The notes under the pieces were generated by a model that did no database searches, had not been told where the DNA came from, and saw only the letters and a program-made list of their open reading frames with translations. DNA of 64,000 bases, taken from positions 1 to 64,000 of the forward strand of contig NZ_LDZY01000014.1 of the NCBI RefSeq assembly GCF_001029285.1, given 5' to 3'. This stretch comes from Desulfosporosinus acididurans (GTDB lineage: Bacteria > Bacillota > Desulfitobacteriia > Desulfitobacteriales > Desulfitobacteriaceae). The stretch's first letter is position 1. Each line of letters opens with the position of its first letter. The position numbers and the translations under genes were made by a program. Below, piece after piece: positions 1-24,043 of this stretch.

Positions 1-1
1 G

Positions 2-967
2 CGTAGTAAGGAGCTTGATGACAACCACCCCAGCAAAACGGATGCTAAGGACCCCAAAACAATTGCTAAGCTGGTCATCGAGGGGAGATACAATGAGCCC
101 TATATCCCGGAGGGGATCTATGCAGAACTGCGAATAGCGATGGCTTGCAGAATGCGCATCCAAAAGGAAATGAGCAGTATAAAAAATCGCATTCAGAGGT
201 GGCTGAAAATCTACTTTCCCGAGCATGAAACGGTGTTTGGAAAGTTTGATGCGACAAGTAGCATGCTGGTTCTGCAAGTTGCCCCGCAACCTAGGGATAT
301 CAAAAGACTTGGAGTAGAAGGAATAAACCGAATTTGGAGAGACAACAAGTTGAGAGCAGTCGGAATGAAAAGGGCTAAGAGCCTGTATGAAGCTGCTCAG
401 AAGAGCATTGGTTGCACCGAAGGAGAGTCTTGTTCCCGAATGGAAATTCAGCTATTACTCCAAGACTATCACACTAAAACAGCACAATATCAGGCAGTCA
501 TAGAAACCATCGATGAGTTGTGCCGTCAGATACCAGAAGTAGCGAAGTTACTTGAAATTAAAGGTGTTGGCCTTGTTACCGTGGCAGGCTTTCTCTCCGA
601 AGTTGGAGATATTAGACGCTTTAATTCTCCAAAGCAGATCCAAAAGCTTGCGGGCTTAGCCTTACGAGAAAGCAGCTCAGGTAAGCACAAGGGACAGACC
701 ACGATCAGTAAGCGCGGCCGCGCACGACTGAGGGCAATCCTATTTCAAGCAGTGATGCCGCTAGTCGCAAAAAACGCAGAGTTTGCAGAGATACACAACT
801 ACTACACAACAAGGATCAAGAATCCCCTGAAGAAGAAACAATCACTAATTGCCTTAAGCTGTAAACTAATTCGGGTGTTCTATGCAATATTAACAAAAGG
901 TACAGAATACGATCCAGAAAAGCTAATTAAGGACATTCATCGTCCAGTTGAGCATTTAGCAGCGTAA
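2..967 (+). mobile_element. IS110-family transposase, 5' end cut by window
   Basis: The frame is open from the first bases of the window, so the gene starts upstream; an internal ATG at 140 is not the true start. The visible N-terminal part carries the acidic stretch with DDNHPSKTDAKDPKTIAKL, typical of the DEDD/RuvC-like half of IS110-family transposases. The C-terminal half (residues with GVGLVTVAGFLSEVGDI, then KLAGLA and KRGRARLR) matches the Transposase_20 helix-hairpin-helix domain. These enzymes insert a circular intermediate at specific sites without making long target duplications. The frame ends normally at TAA 965-967 with no internal stop, so the copy may be functional. Family assignment is firm; the subgroup (IS110 or IS1111) cannot be decided without the left end. 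Confidence 0.9.
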
Positions 968-1383
968 TTAGAATAGCAGCGAAACCATAAGAAACAAACG
1001 ATCTGTGGGTTAAAGCGTCACCACAGAAGCGAGCAATCCAGGTAACCTAGCAAAACAAAAGAGCTGGTAGTCAGTCGCATATTTTTCCATTAGAGCAAGG
1101 ACTCGGTAGAGGAGCATAACTGACACCCAATCATGGATAGGTGGAACGAAGGAATTTAGGGCAGATTTATAATCTTGACCCTGTTAGACATGGGAGGTTT
1201 ACCACCGTGAGAATCATGGGTTTACAACGGCCAACATATCCACAAATAGTAGACGTTGGCTTTGCCATATCCAATTTCTCCGAATTAGACATTTTATGCG
1301 AATTCTATCCGTGGTGAGCTAATTTGGTTAGCTAGGAATTCTATGAAAATACGAGATATCTAAAGAAAATATCAAGATATTAT
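968..1383 (+). other. Non-coding right flank of the IS110-type element
   Basis: No gene is visible in about 410 bases between the transposase stop and the next ribosome binding site. The stretch is rich in short hairpins: GCCAAC 1230-1235 pairs with GTTGGC 1255-1260, and AGCTAA 1317-1322 pairs with TTAGCT 1328-1333, the latter flanked by two copies of GAATTCTAT (1300-1308 and 1336-1344). IS110-family elements have a structured non-coding end that specifies the guide (bridge/seek) RNA. Part of this stretch may be that end, but the element boundary could not be fixed. Confidence 0.4.
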
Positions 1384-1398
1384 AGGGAGGAGAATAAA

Positions 1399-7372: not shown

Positions 7373-7445
7373 AAGCTTGATGGGCTGGTTGGGGTGAAAG
7401 TTATAGATGAGTTCACTAGTTTGAGAGAATTCGAAATTGCTAATT

Positions 7446-7471
7446 AAAAGAGCGTCTATGGGCGCTCTTTT
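7446..7471 (+). terminator. Terminator after the permease gene
   Basis: AAAAGAGCG (7446-7454) pairs with CGCTCTTTT (7463-7471) around an 8-base loop. The arm itself provides the U-rich end. Confidence 0.8.
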
Positions 7472-7951
7472 AGCGTTCTTAATACAGGAAATAGAGGATA
7501 GTGTGCTGGCGGAGTACGTAAGGTAAGTTACATAAAGCTCATTACGCATAAATAGGCTCCGGATAGGAAAAGTAAACAATTAATAATGATTAAAAATGCT
7601 CTCTGGCTTAGATGCTATCAAAGCAAAAACCAGAAAAACAATCGCTAAGGATATAATCAAATCAGTTTCTCTTTTTGACAAAAATTCAAATAATAAAAGG
7701 ACCGAACACATCAACCATAAGGTTTAAATGATAACGATCCAATTAATTATAGCATATCATGTCGAAAAAACTGCAGTTCTGTGGGTAAGCTTGACACTGG
7801 GGCAATGATGGTAAATTGTCTTGTGAAATTGTTTTTTAAACAGGTCGGAAATTTTGACTTTTATACTATAACAATTTGTTGTAAAATGAGTATAGACATT
7901 TGATACAACCAGTCAATTTTAAAGATTTAGATGAAAAACAAGGAGAAGAAA
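7472..7951. other. Intergenic stretch upstream of the hydro-lyase genes
   Basis: About 480 bases with no supported gene. The region 7780-7900 is AT-rich and holds TTGACA-like and TATACT-like hexamers, but no pair with good spacing could be chosen, so the promoter of the following operon is left open. No T-box or other known leader was recognised here. Confidence 0.4.
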
Positions 7952-9238
7952 ATGGGTAAAACAATAGCTGAAAAAATATTTGACGCACATAGGGTAAACA
8001 TGCCTTTTCCAGATACGCATGTTTTAAAATTGGATAGGGTGTTTTGTCATGAAATTACCACGCCGATTGCCATCACAGATCTTATGGCAAGGGGAATGGA
8101 CAGAGTCTTTGATCCCACGAAAATTAAAGCAGTCATAGACCATGTAACACCTGCCAAAGATTCTAAAACGGCTGAACAGGGAAAGATACTGCGGGATTGG
8201 GCTAAAAGGCATGGTATCAAAGATTTTTTTGACATCGGAAGAAATGGCGTTTGTCATGCCATATTTCCAGAAAAGGGATTTGTAAGACCTGGGTATACAG
8301 TGATTATGGGGGATTCTCACACCTGTACTCATGGAGCTTTTGGAGCTTTTGCTGCGGGTGTCGGTACGACCGACTTGGAAGTAGGAATTCTTAAGGGTGT
8401 TTGTGCTTTCCACTTTCCGAAAACCCTTAAATTTGTACTTCGGGGTACTTTAAAGCCCGGCGTTTATGCCAAAGACTTGATACTTTTTCTTATTAAAGAA
8501 TTGACTGTAAACGGTGCTACAAACATGGTCATAGAATTTACAGGACCGGTCATTGATGCCATGTCCATGGAATCACGTATGACTCTTTGCAATATGGCCA
8601 TTGAAGCCGGAGGCACTTGTGGCATTTGTTACCCGGATATGACAACCGTTGAGTATTTATGGGAATTCATAAAAGATGAATTTAAAACGAAGGAAGACGC
8701 CTTGAAAGAATACACCAAATGGGTTTCTGATGAGGATGCTTCTTATGAGAAGGTCTATGAATATGATGTTACCAATTTAGAACCGATGGTTACGTTTGGT
8801 TACAAACCGGACCAAGTAAAAACCGTTAAGGAAATGTCAGGCAGCAAAATTGATCAAGTTTATATAGGGAGCTGCACCAATGGCCGTATCGAAGATCTGA
8901 GAATTGCTGCAAGTATTCTTAAGGACAAAAAAATCAGTGATGATGTGCGTGCCGTTGTAAGTCCTGCAACTCCGGCTATTTATTCGCTGGCCTTAAAAGA
9001 AGGATTAATTGAGATTTTCCAAAACGCCGGTTTTTGTGTTACAAATCCAACCTGCGGTGCATGTCTTGGCATGAGCAATGGAGTTCTTGCTGCTGGTGAG
9101 GTTTGTGCTTCGACGACAAACCGGAACTTTAATGGCCGAATGGGCAAGGGCGGTACCGTTCATCTGATGAGTCCTGCTACAGCCGCAGCTTCAGCGCTCG
9201 AAGGAAAAATAACTAATTCGCAATTATATAAAGCGTGA
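7952..9238 (+). CDS. Isopropylmalate/homoaconitate-type dehydratase, large subunit
   Basis: A 428-residue aconitase-superfamily large subunit. ATG 7952 is chosen over the in-frame ATG 7931 because AAGGAG at 7940-7945 lies between them. Visible family motifs are GDSHTCTHGAFGAF, IGSCTNGR and NPTCGACLGM; the cysteines in the last two are expected [4Fe-4S] ligands. The enzyme moves a hydroxyl group between neighbouring carbons of a dicarboxylic 2- or 3-hydroxy acid. With the small subunit 15 bases downstream it forms a heteromer. It is not within a leucine operon here (no leuA or leuB), so the substrate could be isopropylmalate, homocitrate, citramalate or dimethylmalate. Confidence 0.85.
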   Translation: MGKTIAEKIFDAHRVNMPFPDTHVLKLDRVFCHEITTPIAITDLMARGMDRVFDPTKIKAVIDHVTPAKDSKTAEQGKILRDWAKRHGIKDFFDIGRNGVCHAIFPEKGFVRPGYTVIMGDSHTCTHGAFGAFAAGVGTTDLEVGILKGVCAFHFPKTLKFVLRGTLKPGVYAKDLILFLIKELTVNGATNMVIEFTGPVIDAMSMESRMTLCNMAIEAGGTCGICYPDMTTVEYLWEFIKDEFKTKEDALKEYTKWVSDEDASYEKVYEYDVTNLEPMVTFGYKPDQVKTVKEMSGSKIDQVYIGSCTNGRIEDLRIAASILKDKKISDDVRAVVSPATPAIYSLALKEGLIEIFQNAGFCVTNPTCGACLGMSNGVLAAGEVCASTTNRNFNGRMGKGGTVHLMSPATAAASALEGKITNSQLYKA

Positions 9239-9819: not shown

Positions 9820-10093
9820 ATTAAATACACAAAGCTGTGACGAAAAATAGTACTTGTTTTAATATGCGCAGAGAGAAGATGGTTGGTGAAAATCTTCGTG
9901 AAGAAAACAGGGAAGCCATTTCTGAGCTGTTTAGCCGAATATATCTACCAGTAAGCTTTACCGGAGTTCCGACCGTTATAACGGAAGCGGCATTTTGTGC
10001 CGGCAGAGTGCAGAGTAACCTCTGAATTTAGGTGGTAACACGGATATGCTATTTCGCCCTAAGCTGATTAAAACAGCTTAGGGCTTTTTATTA
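9820..10093 (+). promoter_or_regulatory. T-box riboswitch, probable alanine specificity
   Basis: A tRNA-sensing transcription attenuator. Seen: the AGTA element of the specifier loop, followed by CTTGTTTT that pairs with AAAACAGG; the distal stem I sequence GCAGAGAGAAG...GGTGAAAATC; the T-box itself, AGGTGGTAACACGG at 10030-10043; and a terminator of 10 perfect pairs (10057-10066 with 10074-10083) followed by CTTTTTATT. Directly after AAAACAGG comes GAA-GCC-A, the usual position of the specifier triplet, so the codon is read as GCC (Ala). Uncharged tRNA-Ala would be expected to prevent termination and switch on the aminotransferase downstream. The 62-codon frame inside this leader is not a gene. 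Confidence 0.9.
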
Positions 10094-10170: not shown

Positions 10171-11388
10171 ATGAGAACATTCAATATGTCAAAGAAACTG
10201 GATTATGTCTGTTATGATGTCCGTGGGCCTGTGCTGGAGGAAGCAGAGCGCATGCGCAGTCAAGGCATCGATATTTTGCGTTTAAATATCGGCAACCCTG
10301 CACCGTTTGGCTTTGATGCTCCTGGAGAAATAATTCACGAGATGACTGAAAATCTGCACAATGCTGAGGGATATTCGGACTCCAAGGGTATTCTCTCAGC
10401 TCGTGAAGCAATTGTAAATTACTGTGAATATAAAAAAATACCGCATGTTGGGGTAGATGATGTATATACCGGCAATGGTGTCAGCGAATTAATTGTGATG
10501 GCTATGCAGGGACTTCTCGACAATGGAGATGAGATTCTCGTTCCTGCCCCCGATTATCCGCTGTGGACGGCAGCCGTCACATTGGCAGGTGGAAAAGCCG
10601 TCCATTACATCTGTGATGAGCAGTCCGAATGGTATCCGGATATACAGGATATAAGCAAAAAAATAACCCCCAAAACAAAAGGCATTGTTATTATCAATCC
10701 GAACAATCCGACCGGTGCGGTCTATTCAGTCGAAATATTGGAACAGATTGTAGAACTTGCCCGGCAGCACGGCCTTATTATTTTCTCCGATGAAATATAT
10801 GACCGACTTATGATGGACGGTTTTCAGCACACATCCATTGCTTCATTGGCTCCTGATTTATTTGTTGTAACTCTGAACGGCCTTTCAAAATCCCATAAGA
10901 TCGCCGGATTCCGCTGCGGATGGATGTGCTTGAGCGGAGACAAGTCACAGGCACGCGGCTATATTGCCGGGTTAAACATTCTATCATCTATGCGGTTGTG
11001 TTCAAATGTACAATCGCAGTACGTCATTAAAGCAGCCCTTTCAGACATCCATACATGCGACGACACTCTTTTACCTGGAGGAAGGATCTATGAGCAGCGC
11101 GACTATATAGTCAAGGCTTTAAACAATATTCCTGGTCTTCAGGCGGTAAAACCTAAAGCTGCTTTCTATGTCTTCCCCCGGATTGATACCAAACGGTTCC
11201 ATATCACGGATGATGAAAAATTTATCCTGGACTTTCTGCATGAAAAACACATTCTTATGGTTCATGGGCGTGGATTCAACTGGCTTATGCCTGATCATTT
11301 CCGGATCGTATATTTACCCAAAATCGAGGAATTAAAAATTGCCTGTGACCGCCTAGGCGATTTTCTGGACGGGTATCGGCAGGCATGA
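10171..11388 (+). CDS. alaA: Alanine aminotransferase (AlaA-like)
   Basis: A 405-residue class I PLP aminotransferase that makes alanine from pyruvate and glutamate. The sequence is close to E. coli AlaA along its whole length, including LNIGNPAPFGFDAP, YTGNGVSELIVMAMQ, LVPAPDYPLWTAAV, GIVIINPNNPTGAVYS and the PLP-lysine region LNGLSKSHKIAGFR. The ribosome binding site is AAGGGTGA before ATG 10171. The Ala-type T-box upstream independently supports a role in alanine supply. A terminator lies about 130 bases downstream, so it stands alone. Confidence 0.9.
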   Translation: MRTFNMSKKLDYVCYDVRGPVLEEAERMRSQGIDILRLNIGNPAPFGFDAPGEIIHEMTENLHNAEGYSDSKGILSAREAIVNYCEYKKIPHVGVDDVYTGNGVSELIVMAMQGLLDNGDEILVPAPDYPLWTAAVTLAGGKAVHYICDEQSEWYPDIQDISKKITPKTKGIVIINPNNPTGAVYSVEILEQIVELARQHGLIIFSDEIYDRLMMDGFQHTSIASLAPDLFVVTLNGLSKSHKIAGFRCGWMCLSGDKSQARGYIAGLNILSSMRLCSNVQSQYVIKAALSDIHTCDDTLLPGGRIYEQRDYIVKALNNIPGLQAVKPKAAFYVFPRIDTKRFHITDDEKFILDFLHEKHILMVHGRGFNWLMPDHFRIVYLPKIEELKIACDRLGDFLDGYRQA

Positions 11389-19316: not shown

Positions 19317-19344
19317 AAGGAGCGTTTTTGGACGCTCCTTTTTG
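19317..19344 (+). terminator. Terminator after the racemase gene
   Basis: AAGGAGCGT (19317-19325) pairs with ACGCTCCTT (19332-19340), followed by T-rich sequence. Confidence 0.85.
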
Positions 19345-19479
19345 CTTTTGTTGCAGGAAATGAATGATAATAGTGGAATTATTATGATATGCTTAAATGC
19401 CTGGTAAGTAAGACCGCCACGCCAGAGAGCAGTAAGAGCCGTATGACTTGAAAAAATTATTGATAGCGAGGGGATATAT

Positions 19480-21242: not shown

Positions 21243-22199
21243 GTGAATTCGCGGAACATGAATTTGATACATATCATTCGGAGATTTAATCGATTTTACA
21301 CTAATATTTTGGGATTACTGGACAAGCATATTTATGAAAGCGAATTTTCGCTTGCAGAAGTTCGGGTTTTATACGATATTGAACATATGGAAGTTTGTAC
21401 AGCTAAGAAATTGATAGAAGAGTTAAAAATTGATCCAGGTTATCTAAGCAGAATAATAAAACGCTTTGAGAATGATAGCCTTATATACAGAGTACAGTCC
21501 CCGGAAGATGGTCGGTTATATTACCTTTTCCTTACGGATAAAGGCAAAAATACTCTTTCAAAGTTGAATGATTTGTCTAATGACCAAATCTATAACTTAA
21601 TCAGCCGTCTGCCAGAACGAGATAAAATGAGTGTTGTAGAAAGTATGAAAACTGTCGAAAACGCTTTCTCAGGAAAACCTATAAAAATCAAAGAAAAGAT
21701 TACAATTCGCAGTGAATTGAGACCGGGAGATGTGGGTTATTTAATTCATCTTCATGGAAGGTTTTATGCGGAAGAATGTAAATATAACTATATGTTTGAA
21801 GGATATGTCTGCAAAACGATTTTCGATATGTTTAATAATTACAACGTGGAAAAGGATAGATTCTGGTTTGCAGAAGCGAATGGAGAAATAATTGGCTCCA
21901 TTGCTATTATTGGACATTCTGCGACACGAGCTCAGTTAAGATGGTTCATTCTTCATCCATCATTCAGAGGAATTGGCTTGGGAAACACTCTGCTAAATGA
22001 AGCTGTGAAATACTGTCAGGAGAAAGGATATGAACAGGTATTTCTAGAAACTACAGATGACCAAAAAATCGCAATCAAAATGTACATGAACGTAGGATTT
22101 AAGAAAGTGGCGGAACATGAAAATAAGGAGTGGGGAAGGAAATTGATTGAACAAACCTATGAGTTGAGCTTACCTCTAGGGAATATGGTTTCTAACTGA
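21243..22199 (+). CDS. MarR regulator fused to a GNAT acetyltransferase
   Basis: A 318-residue fusion starting at GTG 21243 with GGAGGAGGG just upstream. Residues 1-150 are a MarR winged helix (CTAKKLIEELKIDPGYLSRIIKRFE; wing SPEDGRLYYLFLT). Residues 165-310 are a GNAT domain with the acetyl-CoA loop RGIGLGNTLLNEAV and the closing GFKKVAEHE strand. This domain order is a known architecture in Firmicutes and other bacteria; the acetyl acceptor is generally unknown. It stands alone between its promoter and the terminator at 22257-22286. Self-regulation through the -35 palindrome is an inference. Confidence 0.9.
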   Translation: MNSRNMNLIHIIRRFNRFYTNILGLLDKHIYESEFSLAEVRVLYDIEHMEVCTAKKLIEELKIDPGYLSRIIKRFENDSLIYRVQSPEDGRLYYLFLTDKGKNTLSKLNDLSNDQIYNLISRLPERDKMSVVESMKTVENAFSGKPIKIKEKITIRSELRPGDVGYLIHLHGRFYAEECKYNYMFEGYVCKTIFDMFNNYNVEKDRFWFAEANGEIIGSIAIIGHSATRAQLRWFILHPSFRGIGLGNTLLNEAVKYCQEKGYEQVFLETTDDQKIAIKMYMNVGFKKVAEHENKEWGRKLIEQTYELSLPLGNMVSN

Positions 22200-22290: not shown

Positions 22291-22587
22291 TTTTTCATGG
22301 TTTCTCTTATCTTTATCTTTGAGATTTCCTCTGCAATTAGAATACAATAAAGTTCATGATATTTTATCAGCTTTGTTTCAAGAATTTATCAAGATTATAA
22401 AAGAGCGGCAAAAAGTGCCTATGCCACGCTAAAAGCAAGCCGGTAGTCAAGCGAGAGTTATTTAGAAGTCGAGAACATATGCAGATGTATTTATTTGGTT
22501 AAGCACAATAACTGAAATCCTCATCGGTGCGCTCTGAGTCAAGTTTGGAATAGAAGGCAATATTATATAGTAACCATAAATTCCTAT

Positions 22588-22616
22588 TTGCTTTTTGAAC
22601 TTAACCTTGTTATAAT
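22588..22616 (+). promoter_or_regulatory. Promoter of the 6S-like RNA
   Basis: TTGCTT 22588-22593 and a consensus TATAAT 22611-22616 with a 17-base spacer. The predicted start near 22622-22623 coincides with the first paired base of the RNA described next. Confidence 0.7.
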
Positions 22617-22621
22617 GAGTT

Positions 22622-22817
22622 TCCAAGAAACCTGCGATGTGCGAAGATTTGATTTGGTTTTGATCCTATTTGAAATTTCGGGAATTTGAGAAACTTACTG
22701 ATTAGGTCAGGCCTCTGCTGTTAGAGGAAGACTGAAAAGTAGGGTGAAAATGCCCACCTGCGAGAGCGGGGTTAAAAACCAAATAATCTAAACGGCTTTG
22801 CGGGGAATCTAATTGGT
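22622..22817 (+). ncRNA. ssrS: Probable 6S RNA
   Basis: A rod-shaped RNA of about 195 bases, the usual size of 6S RNA. The ends pair: CCAA 22623-22626 with TTGG 22813-22816, CCTGC 22631-22635 with GCGGG 22800-22804, AGATT with AATCT, and ATTTGG with CCAAAT (22779-22784). These closing helices frame a large weakly paired centre, and the far end closes with CAG-CCTCT/AGAGG-CTG. The 5' sequence CCTGCGATGTGCGA resembles the start of other bacterial 6S RNAs. Such RNA mimics an open promoter and sequesters housekeeping RNA polymerase. Promoter and terminator flank it exactly, and there is no open frame. A different structured RNA cannot be ruled out without a covariance search. Confidence 0.65.
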
Positions 22818-22824
22818 GAAATGT

Positions 22825-22858
22825 AATCCAGAGCAACGAAATGCTCTGGATTTTTTCT
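22825..22858 (+). terminator. Terminator of the 6S-like RNA
   Basis: AATCCAGAGCA (22825-22835) pairs perfectly with TGCTCTGGATT (22842-22852), followed by a T run. It is separate from the RNA body. Confidence 0.9.
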
Positions 22859-23065
22859 TATTAAGGAAATATATTTAAGGAATTAGATAAATCTTTCCGC
22901 CATTTGGATATTGTAACCAAAGATATCTTGTATTTTAACGTGTTTCGGAAGATAATAAAATCGCTATACATATTCAACACATTGCTATTTGGAATTCGCT
23001 TGTGGTGCTGTTGTTAAAAATCTTCAAATTCAATTTAAAAGTTATAGGGAGGGTGATACCAGATC

Positions 23066-24043
23066 ATGTTAACTCCAAGACAGAATTTGTTCGAAACAAT
23101 CAGAGGTGGCAAACCTGATCGTTTTGTCAACCAGTATGAATTCATGGAAATAATTATGGAAACCCGTTTTGATAAAAAGCTTCCGATCGGGGGGGAGGGC
23201 GTAAACAGCTGGGGAATCACTTACAGATGGCCTGAAGGACAGATCGGTCAGTTTCCTGTGCATGATGACGAGCACAAGGTATTAAAAGATATTACCGAGT
23301 GGAAAAAGTACGTCAAAGCACCGGTGATCTCGACGTCTGATGAATTCTGGGCTCCAGCCATAGCACATGCTGACTCTGTGGACCGCAATGAAAAATTCGT
23401 GACGGCGTTTGTTGCACCGGGAATCTTTGAACAGTGCCATAATCTTATGGGCATGGAAGATGCCCTGATGGCGTTATATGAGGAGCCTGAAGCTATGCAT
23501 GAGCTGATTGATTACCTAGTTGATTTTGAGCTGGCTTATGCAAAAGAAATAATCGACCACATCCATCCCGATGCACTTTTCCATCATGACGATTGGGGCA
23601 GTCAAAAAAATTCGTTTATTTCTCCGGAAATGTTTGAAGAGTTTTACTTACCCGCTTATAAAAAAGTCTACGGTTTCTATAAGGCCAATGGCGTCGAACT
23701 GATCGTTCACCACAGTGATTCTTATGCTGCCAACCTAGTCGATTATATGATTGAAATGGGAATTGACATCTGGCAGGGAGTCATGACGACCAATAACACG
23801 CCGGAGCTGATCAAGAAATATGGCGGGAAAATCTCTTTCATGGGCGATTTGGACAGCGGTACCATCGACTTTCCGAACTGGACGCAGGAGATTTGTGCTG
23901 AAGAAGTCAGAAGGGCTTGCACACATTGCGGAAAGCTTTACTTCATCCCCTGTTTAACCCAAGGTCTGGGCGTCAGTTCTTTCCCCGGTGTCTATGATTG
24001 TGTAAGCTCCGAGATTGATAAAGTGAGCAAGGAAATGTTTTAA
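23066..24043 (+). CDS. Uroporphyrinogen decarboxylase-fold methyltransferase
   Basis: A 325-residue protein with site AGGGAGGGTGA before ATG 23066. The fold is that of uroporphyrinogen decarboxylase, used in anaerobes by methyltransferases that move methyl groups between corrinoid proteins and a thiol or tetrahydrofolate (MtaA/MtbA and O-demethylase families). Candidate zinc ligands are in ELIVHHSDSYA and FIPCLTQG. It lacks the conserved N-terminal RxxxxP...R pattern of true HemE. No corrinoid protein or partner methyltransferase is nearby, so its donor and acceptor are unknown. A terminator follows directly. Confidence 0.75.
   Translation: MLTPRQNLFETIRGGKPDRFVNQYEFMEIIMETRFDKKLPIGGEGVNSWGITYRWPEGQIGQFPVHDDEHKVLKDITEWKKYVKAPVISTSDEFWAPAIAHADSVDRNEKFVTAFVAPGIFEQCHNLMGMEDALMALYEEPEAMHELIDYLVDFELAYAKEIIDHIHPDALFHHDDWGSQKNSFISPEMFEEFYLPAYKKVYGFYKANGVELIVHHSDSYAANLVDYMIEMGIDIWQGVMTTNNTPELIKKYGGKISFMGDLDSGTIDFPNWTQEICAEEVRRACTHCGKLYFIPCLTQGLGVSSFPGVYDCVSSEIDKVSKEMF

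What the first reader, a model, noticed from the sequence alone, without database searches (positions are those of the whole stretch)
22588..22858. Probable 6S RNA with a matched promoter and terminator in an 870-base gap
The predicted start, the end-to-end pairing, a size near 195 bases, the 6S-like 5' sequence CCTGCGATGTGCGA and a separate terminator all agree. A region that looks empty holds a global regulator of RNA polymerase.
Basis: partly seen in the sequence, partly recalled or inferred. Interest (0 to 1): 0.6.

Follow-up and report, generated by a model that had tools for sequence, protein, structure and literature searches.

The report
Second 6S RNA gene in Desulfosporosinus
The empty-looking gap does hold a complete gene for 6S RNA, a known RNA that restrains RNA polymerase; the unusual part is that it belongs to a second, scattered and mostly broken family of 6S copies that some species of this bacterial genus carry beside the ordinary single 6S gene.

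Summary
The finding is correct. Rfam's 6S model (RF00013) matches window 22626-22810, + strand, over its whole length with 84 bits (gathering score 46.4). An extended -10 box lies just upstream (22608-22616) and a strong intrinsic terminator just downstream (22825-22852). The genome is a Desulfosporosinus. As an RNA it is an ordinary member of a known family.

The surroundings are less ordinary. A conserved "type 1" 6S gene is found once in 26 of 29 genus genomes, with no fragments elsewhere. The window gene belongs to a separate clade on a long branch ("type 2", support 100/100), clearly present in 8 of 29. There it is often multi-copy, sits mostly in unrelated places and is mostly broken. 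The own genome has 13 type-2 places; of 14 stretches examined only the window copy is full-length with -10 box, product-RNA template and terminator. One relative has six 6S genes, five of type 2. My searches found no report of such a family, but the key survey paper is not held. How it spread is unresolved. Function is inferred: a second 6S RNA that holds housekeeping RNA polymerase and is released by product-RNA synthesis.

The parts
22588..22593 (+). weak -35-like hexamer TTGCTT
   Evidence: 3 of 6 to TTGACA, 17-base spacer (read); not listed by the consensus scan
22608..22616 (+). extended -10 box TGTTATAAT
   Evidence: a TGNTANNNT box upstream of the RNA also in other type-2 copies, e.g. 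G008 68 kb, C24, 55 kb, G009 2566 kb
22626..22810 (+). 6S RNA (type 2)
   Evidence: RF00013, 84 bits, model 1-187; fold z = -3.5. The transcription start is inferred as about 22623-22626
22656..22670 (+). predicted template of the product RNA (GGTTTTGATCCTAT plus the next base), 5' strand of the central region
   Evidence: motif at 22656-22669, shared with all 25 type-1-like rows of the alignment (invariant columns) and with most type-2 rows; product-RNA hallmarks from PMC8414754 section 12; exact start inferred
22825..22858 (+). separate intrinsic terminator (stem 22825-22852 and T-rich tail)
   Evidence: two compensating pair changes between the window and G009 2566 kb, by eye

Best explanation
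A complete gene for a second 6S RNA (type 2) of a Desulfosporosinus. Shown: a full-length match to the 6S family, an extended -10 box and a terminator of its own; of 14 type-2 stretches examined in this genome it is the only full-length one with all these parts, beside the conserved type-1 6S gene on contig C1. Inferred: RNA polymerase with the housekeeping sigma factor transcribes it; the folded RNA mimics an open promoter and occupies that holoenzyme, more so late in growth; when nucleotides return, the polymerase uses the 5' strand of the central bubble (22656-22670) as template for a short product RNA, about 5'-AAUAGGAUCAAAACC, and lets go. Types 1 and 2 share the template motif but differ in promoter, terminator and much of the rest, so they probably differ in when they are made and how tightly they hold. 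The gene belongs to a family of copies that has spread to many places in several species and mostly decayed.
For: RF00013 full length, 84 bits; fold z = -3.5; promoter and terminator at fitting distances; template motif kept; only 6 differences in 185 columns to the syntenic ortholog in G008, about 97%, against 92% in the 3.5 kb downstream that contains genes; with the Rfam structure 75.7% of cells in 14 type-2 rows pair, against at most 53.2% when slid; all other stretches examined in the own genome (13 of 14) are truncated, deleted or lack a part.
Against: No expression data. The -35 is weak. Covariation is weak: 7 pairs with changes on both sides, reached by 133 of 500 shuffles; the paired percentage is reached by 93 of 500, and RNAalifold gives a slightly unfavourable covariation term; the 14 rows include decaying copies. 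9 of 51 Rfam pairs are not standard in the window. Sister copies are mostly broken, so this one might also be on its way out. The predicted product-RNA start lacks the neighbouring A seen elsewhere.
Confidence: 0.9

Rival explanations
1. A recently silenced 6S gene: one of the decaying type-2 copies that has not yet lost a recognisable part and is no longer expressed or used.
For: Most type-2 stretches are broken (12 of 39 keep the template motif; 4 of 39 also have a -10-like box and a terminator that the script recognised); a type-1 gene is present; weak -35.
Against: Promoter, full RNA and terminator are kept, and the RNA differs from its G008 ortholog at only 6 of 185 columns while neighbouring DNA differs by about 8%.
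Confidence: 0.09
2. Not 6S RNA but another hairpin RNA or a chance fold.
For: 9 of 51 pairs of the Rfam structure are non-standard in the window.
Against: E = 4.1e-15 over the full model, no other family near its gathering score.
Confidence: 0.01

Closest known systems
6S / SsrS RNA, Rfam RF00013
   Same: Full-length match, length, end-to-end hairpin with a central region, product-RNA template motif, own promoter and terminator.
   Different: Nothing in the RNA itself excludes it from the family; the copy-number behaviour of its subfamily differs from what I found described.
Conserved type-1 6S RNA of Desulfosporosinus (own genome C1:294696-294881, minus strand)
   Same: Same Rfam family; same template motif GGTTTTGATCCTAT.
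   Different: Other promoter and, by eye, a terminator that overlaps the 3' end of the RNA (last line); one full place in each of 26 of 29 genomes and no fragments, six weak cross-matches to type 2 aside; separate clade.
Sibling 6S RNAs: 6S-1/6S-2 of Bacillus subtilis and two 6S RNAs of Legionella pneumophila (PMC4211561, passages); two tandem 6S genes in the Bacillus cereus group (PMC7726162, start of abstract); two copies in some Firmicutes (PMC8414754, passage)
   Same: More than one 6S RNA per genome, with different expression reported for the first two.
   Different: In these sources two copies; here up to five type-2 genes above the family cut-off in one genome (G008) and many fragments.

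Membership tests
6S RNA (RF00013) | covariance-model score above the curated cut-off | tested here: met
   84 bits against 46.4, model 1-187
6S RNA (RF00013) | long hairpin closed end to end with an open central region | tested here: met
   fold z = -3.5; 42 of 51 Rfam pairs standard in the window; slid controls lower
6S RNA (RF00013) | covariation that supports the structure within type 2 | tested here: inconclusive
   covariation score reached by 2 of 500 shuffles, but pairs with double changes by 133 of 500 and paired percentage by 93 of 500; term of +0.74 kcal/mol in RNAalifold
6S RNA (RF00013) | sequence hallmarks of a product-RNA template | tested here: inconclusive
   GG at 4/5 and AA at 9/10 if the start is 22669, but no A beside that start
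6S RNA (RF00013) | binds the housekeeping RNA polymerase holoenzyme and templates a product RNA | not testable with these tools
   needs biochemistry
6S RNA (RF00013) | transcribed, abundant late in growth | not testable with these tools
   promoter and terminator sequences only; no RNA-seq searched

The most novel reading that the evidence does not exclude
In Desulfosporosinus a 6S RNA gene became a dispersed repeat. A unit of roughly 320 bases (promoter, 6S RNA, terminator, in many copies followed by a second promoter) has multiplied and spread between genomic places and perhaps between species, carried by accessory-gene arrays or copied from the abundant RNA itself, leaving mostly 5'-truncated remnants and a few extra 6S genes that may be live. 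That would be a bacterial parallel to the short interspersed elements that animals made from structural RNA genes.
Probability: 0.25. Interest if true: 0.7.

Novelty: new member of a known kind. Interest (0 to 1): 0.38.

Why it matters
6S RNA is usually found as one or two genes per genome and holds RNA polymerase in reserve. A genus in which one 6S gene is fixed and single while a second kind multiplies, moves and decays lets one ask whether extra 6S copies do anything, and what moves a structural RNA gene in bacteria. For the window itself the gain is modest: a regulator annotated in a gap that looked empty.

Tried and rejected
(1) 6S on phages or plasmids: no match for window 22560-22870 in either collection. 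Three viral contigs matched an 18-base type-2 pattern, but none of the three loci reaches the 6S gathering score, so I take them as chance.

(2) Type 2 outside the genus: of 22 stretches of GTDB contigs with that pattern, 9 are Desulfosporosinus and 13 are from scattered organisms. 5 of the 13 went to Rfam and none is 6S at the gathering score; the other 8 were not tested. Of the 9 Desulfosporosinus stretches, 5 reach the cut-off. The pattern is exact, so more diverged type-2 RNAs elsewhere would be missed.

(3) Type 2 derived from type 1 within the genus: undecided. A tree that holds both together is not rejected (p-AU 0.287).

(4) Retroposition of the RNA: three profile matches start at position 80 and one at 86, the RNA's 5' end being at 81, without the promoter; two of these four (G006 C49 and C72) are duplicates of one another. 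29 of 37 profile matches reach the 3' end of the unit and 10 of 37 the 5' end. But those 10 include the promoter region, and 17 of 39 stretches go on into a shared block past the terminator, so the 3' ends are not ends of an RNA copy. Not shown.

(5) Integron-like arrays: a ~100-base hairpin repeat has 31 matches in the own genome, 30 of them on the + strand of their contigs, but no gene reaches the integron-integrase cut-off in 29 of 29 genomes; weaker matches occur in all 29 and in all 14 control genomes and mean no more than tyrosine recombinases. The repeat's fold is not better than shuffles (z = -0.68). Left open.

(6) 6S as attachment site of integrated elements: window 22542-22612 recurs at both ends of a ~15.5-kb stretch in G008, but the two pieces have diverged; not pursued.

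(7) A tRNA-like 3' end seen by eye beside G027's copy: ARAGORN found no tRNA in that 20-kb stretch.

(8) A first tree had 5 outgroup rows on the wrong strand and is discarded. The tree used leaves out three truncated or deleted rows (G006c, G000c, G008f).

Limits. The own genome is in 47 contigs, so copies may be missed, or counted twice at contig ends. The 39 stretches are not all matches; several short ones in G008, G009 and G025 were left out. In one search the -10 and terminator rules were strict, so counts of complete copies are lower bounds. [quoted passage not shown] '6S RNA' with Desulfosporosinus: 0 papers. Pseudogene/duplication, multiple-6S-gene, prophage/mobile-element and integration-site searches (listings only) showed no title or abstract start on such a family.

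Full report
WHAT IS THERE. The finding places a 6S RNA with promoter and terminator at 22588-22858, and the sequence agrees. The gap between the ORF that ends at 22199 and the one that starts at 23066 is 866 bases. Rfam's 6S model matches 22626-22810, + strand, over all 187 positions with 84 bits, E = 4.1e-15, gathering score 46.4. With permissive settings (E up to 10) nothing else in the gap comes near its own gathering score. The RNA folds end to end at -55 kcal/mol, z = -3.5, 1 of 200 shuffles as good. TGTTATAAT is at 22608-22616; the -35 is weak (3 of 6) and the consensus scan did not list this promoter. The terminator stem 22825-22852 was found by the scan.

WHERE IT COMES FROM. The lineage is Bacillota, Clostridia, Desulfitobacteriaceae.

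TWO KINDS OF 6S RNA. With the family model the own genome has three places: the window (84 bits), contig C1 (70.4) and contig C7 (30.1, below the cut-off). Of 60 genomes (29 of the genus including the own one, 7 of the family, 24 of the order) 56 have a match; most have one, G008 six, G000, G002, G006 and G027 three, G009, G048 and G049 two. I read and aligned the genus copies. Type 1 has promoters like TAGAGATTTTTTT...TATAAT and, by eye, a terminator that overlaps the 3' end of the RNA. A DNA search with the own type-1 gene finds one full place in each of 26 of 29 genus genomes; six further weak matches of 29-30 bases fall in type-2 copies. Type 2, the window's kind, has TGTTATAAT-like promoters and a separate terminator. 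In a tree of 49 rows type 2 is one clade (11 rows, 100/100) on a long branch and type 1 one group (26 rows, 89/94); whether type 2 arose from type 1 within the genus is not decided (p-AU 0.287).

TYPE 2 IS SCATTERED AND MOSTLY BROKEN. A DNA search with window 22555-22870 gives matches at E <= 0.001 in 21 of 29 genus genomes. In 11 of the 21 the only match is a short stretch inside the type-1 gene; G003 and G014 have further matches of 32-42 bases that I leave open. Clear type-2 copies or fragments are in 8: G000, G002, G006, G008, G009, G011, G025, G027. In the own genome 15 rows pass E <= 0.001: the window, the cross-match to type 1, and 13 rows that make 12 further type-2 places, two rows being pieces of one copy. 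Of 39 type-2 stretches put into a script, 14 from the own genome, 12 keep the 14-base template motif, and 4 keep it together with a -10-like box upstream and a recognised terminator: the window, its ortholog in G008 (68 kb), G008 at 55 kb and G009 at 2566 kb. In the own genome the nearest rival, C9 at 120 kb, has TATAAT, motif and terminator but has lost the 3' half of the RNA; the window copy is the only full-length one with all parts. Two copies (own C7 at 133.9 kb, G008 contig C2) have lost the same middle part between two ACCTGCGA repeats.

SYNTENY. The window copy and G008 at 68.7 kb are orthologs: 92% over 3.5 kb downstream including the URO-D-like gene, and the upstream ORF at 90%, though G008 has about 2.1 kb more downstream of 6S and about 15.5 kb more upstream. 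In G009 a 6S copy and a 3' fragment lie upstream of the same URO-D-like gene (89%). Own C7 at 133.9 kb and G009 at 1341 kb are orthologs of each other (91% over 2.5 kb downstream). I found no long shared flanks between the window copy and the other copies compared (output cut at 9000 characters). So some copies are old and inherited, and the family has been moving and dying for some time.

WHAT LIES BESIDE THE COPIES. 17 of 39 stretches continue beyond the terminator into a shared block ending in a second promoter-like sequence (...GTGGTATAATTA; at least 21 of 31 letters, reached by 0 of 2000 random window stretches), after which different genes follow (by eye). The window copy lacks this block. 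Several copies on own contig C7 lie in arrays of short genes with a hairpin-like repeat between them; that repeat has 31 matches in the genome. 29 of 37 profile matches reach the 3' end of the unit, 10 of 37 the 5' end. I have no mechanism that accounts for this.

HOW IT LIKELY WORKS. For the family: 6S RNA binds RNA polymerase holoenzyme and is released through product-RNA synthesis (abstract starts of PMC8876501 and PMC12005410 in the listing). For this copy: the motif GGTTTTGATCCTAT (22656-22669) is shared with type 1. Read as template it gives (A)AUAGGAUCAAAACC. PMC8414754 (section 12 read) gives as hallmarks GG at 4/5 or 5/6, AA at 9/10 and an A beside the start. A start at 22669 fits the first two and not the third, so it may be off by one or two. 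B. subtilis and L. pneumophila have two 6S RNAs with different expression (PMC4211561, passages); a division of labour here is analogy. The terminator stem shows two compensating pair changes between the window and G009 (AATCCAGAGC/GCTCTGGATT against AATCCGAAGC/GCTTCGGATT, by eye). Against a neat story: covariation within type 2 is weak, and no transcript has been seen.

VERDICT. Observation confirmed, interpretation supported. The RNA is a new member of a known family. The dispersal of its subfamily is what a specialist may find surprising; it is shown as a pattern and not explained.

Noticed in passing
L137 (G000:C7:200000-219999) and L138 (G000:C7:240000-255000); also own C28, C16, C9, C38 and C14 beyond the window: Arrays of short genes separated by a ~100-base repeat (CCACCAGTCAACCCACC..CTCCTTCAATCCCGCAGGATGGGATG..), 31 matches in the genome, 30 on the + strand of their contigs, 400-2000 bases apart within arrays; integron-like in layout, but no integron integrase above cut-off in 29 genus genomes.
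   Followed up: partly
L046 7695-7765 (G002): A type-2 6S copy in Desulfosporosinus sp. BG has the type-2 promoter upstream in inverted orientation.
   Followed up: no
L036 and L154 (G006): A promoterless type-2 6S begins directly behind an ORF's coding sequence, and its first 97 bases with the upstream 255 bases (98%) recur on another contig.
   Followed up: no
L035 (G027): Two diverged type-2 copies 2.5 kb apart, one followed by a sequence that looks like a tRNA 3' end by eye; ARAGORN finds no tRNA there.
   Followed up: partly
window 9828-10064: T-box leader (RF00230, 114.8 bits) upstream of an aminotransferase-like ORF at 10171-11388 (function by eye).
   Followed up: no
window 7442-7500 and 19319-19387: Short stretches 78-83% identical to a terminator-like repeat that also lies in the accessory-gene arrays of L137 and L138.
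   Followed up: no
window 1-1390: Contig start with a transposase-like ORF (140-967, looks like IS110 by eye) and stretches repeated at the ends of contigs C33 and C41, which also carry 5' fragments of type-2 6S.
   Followed up: no
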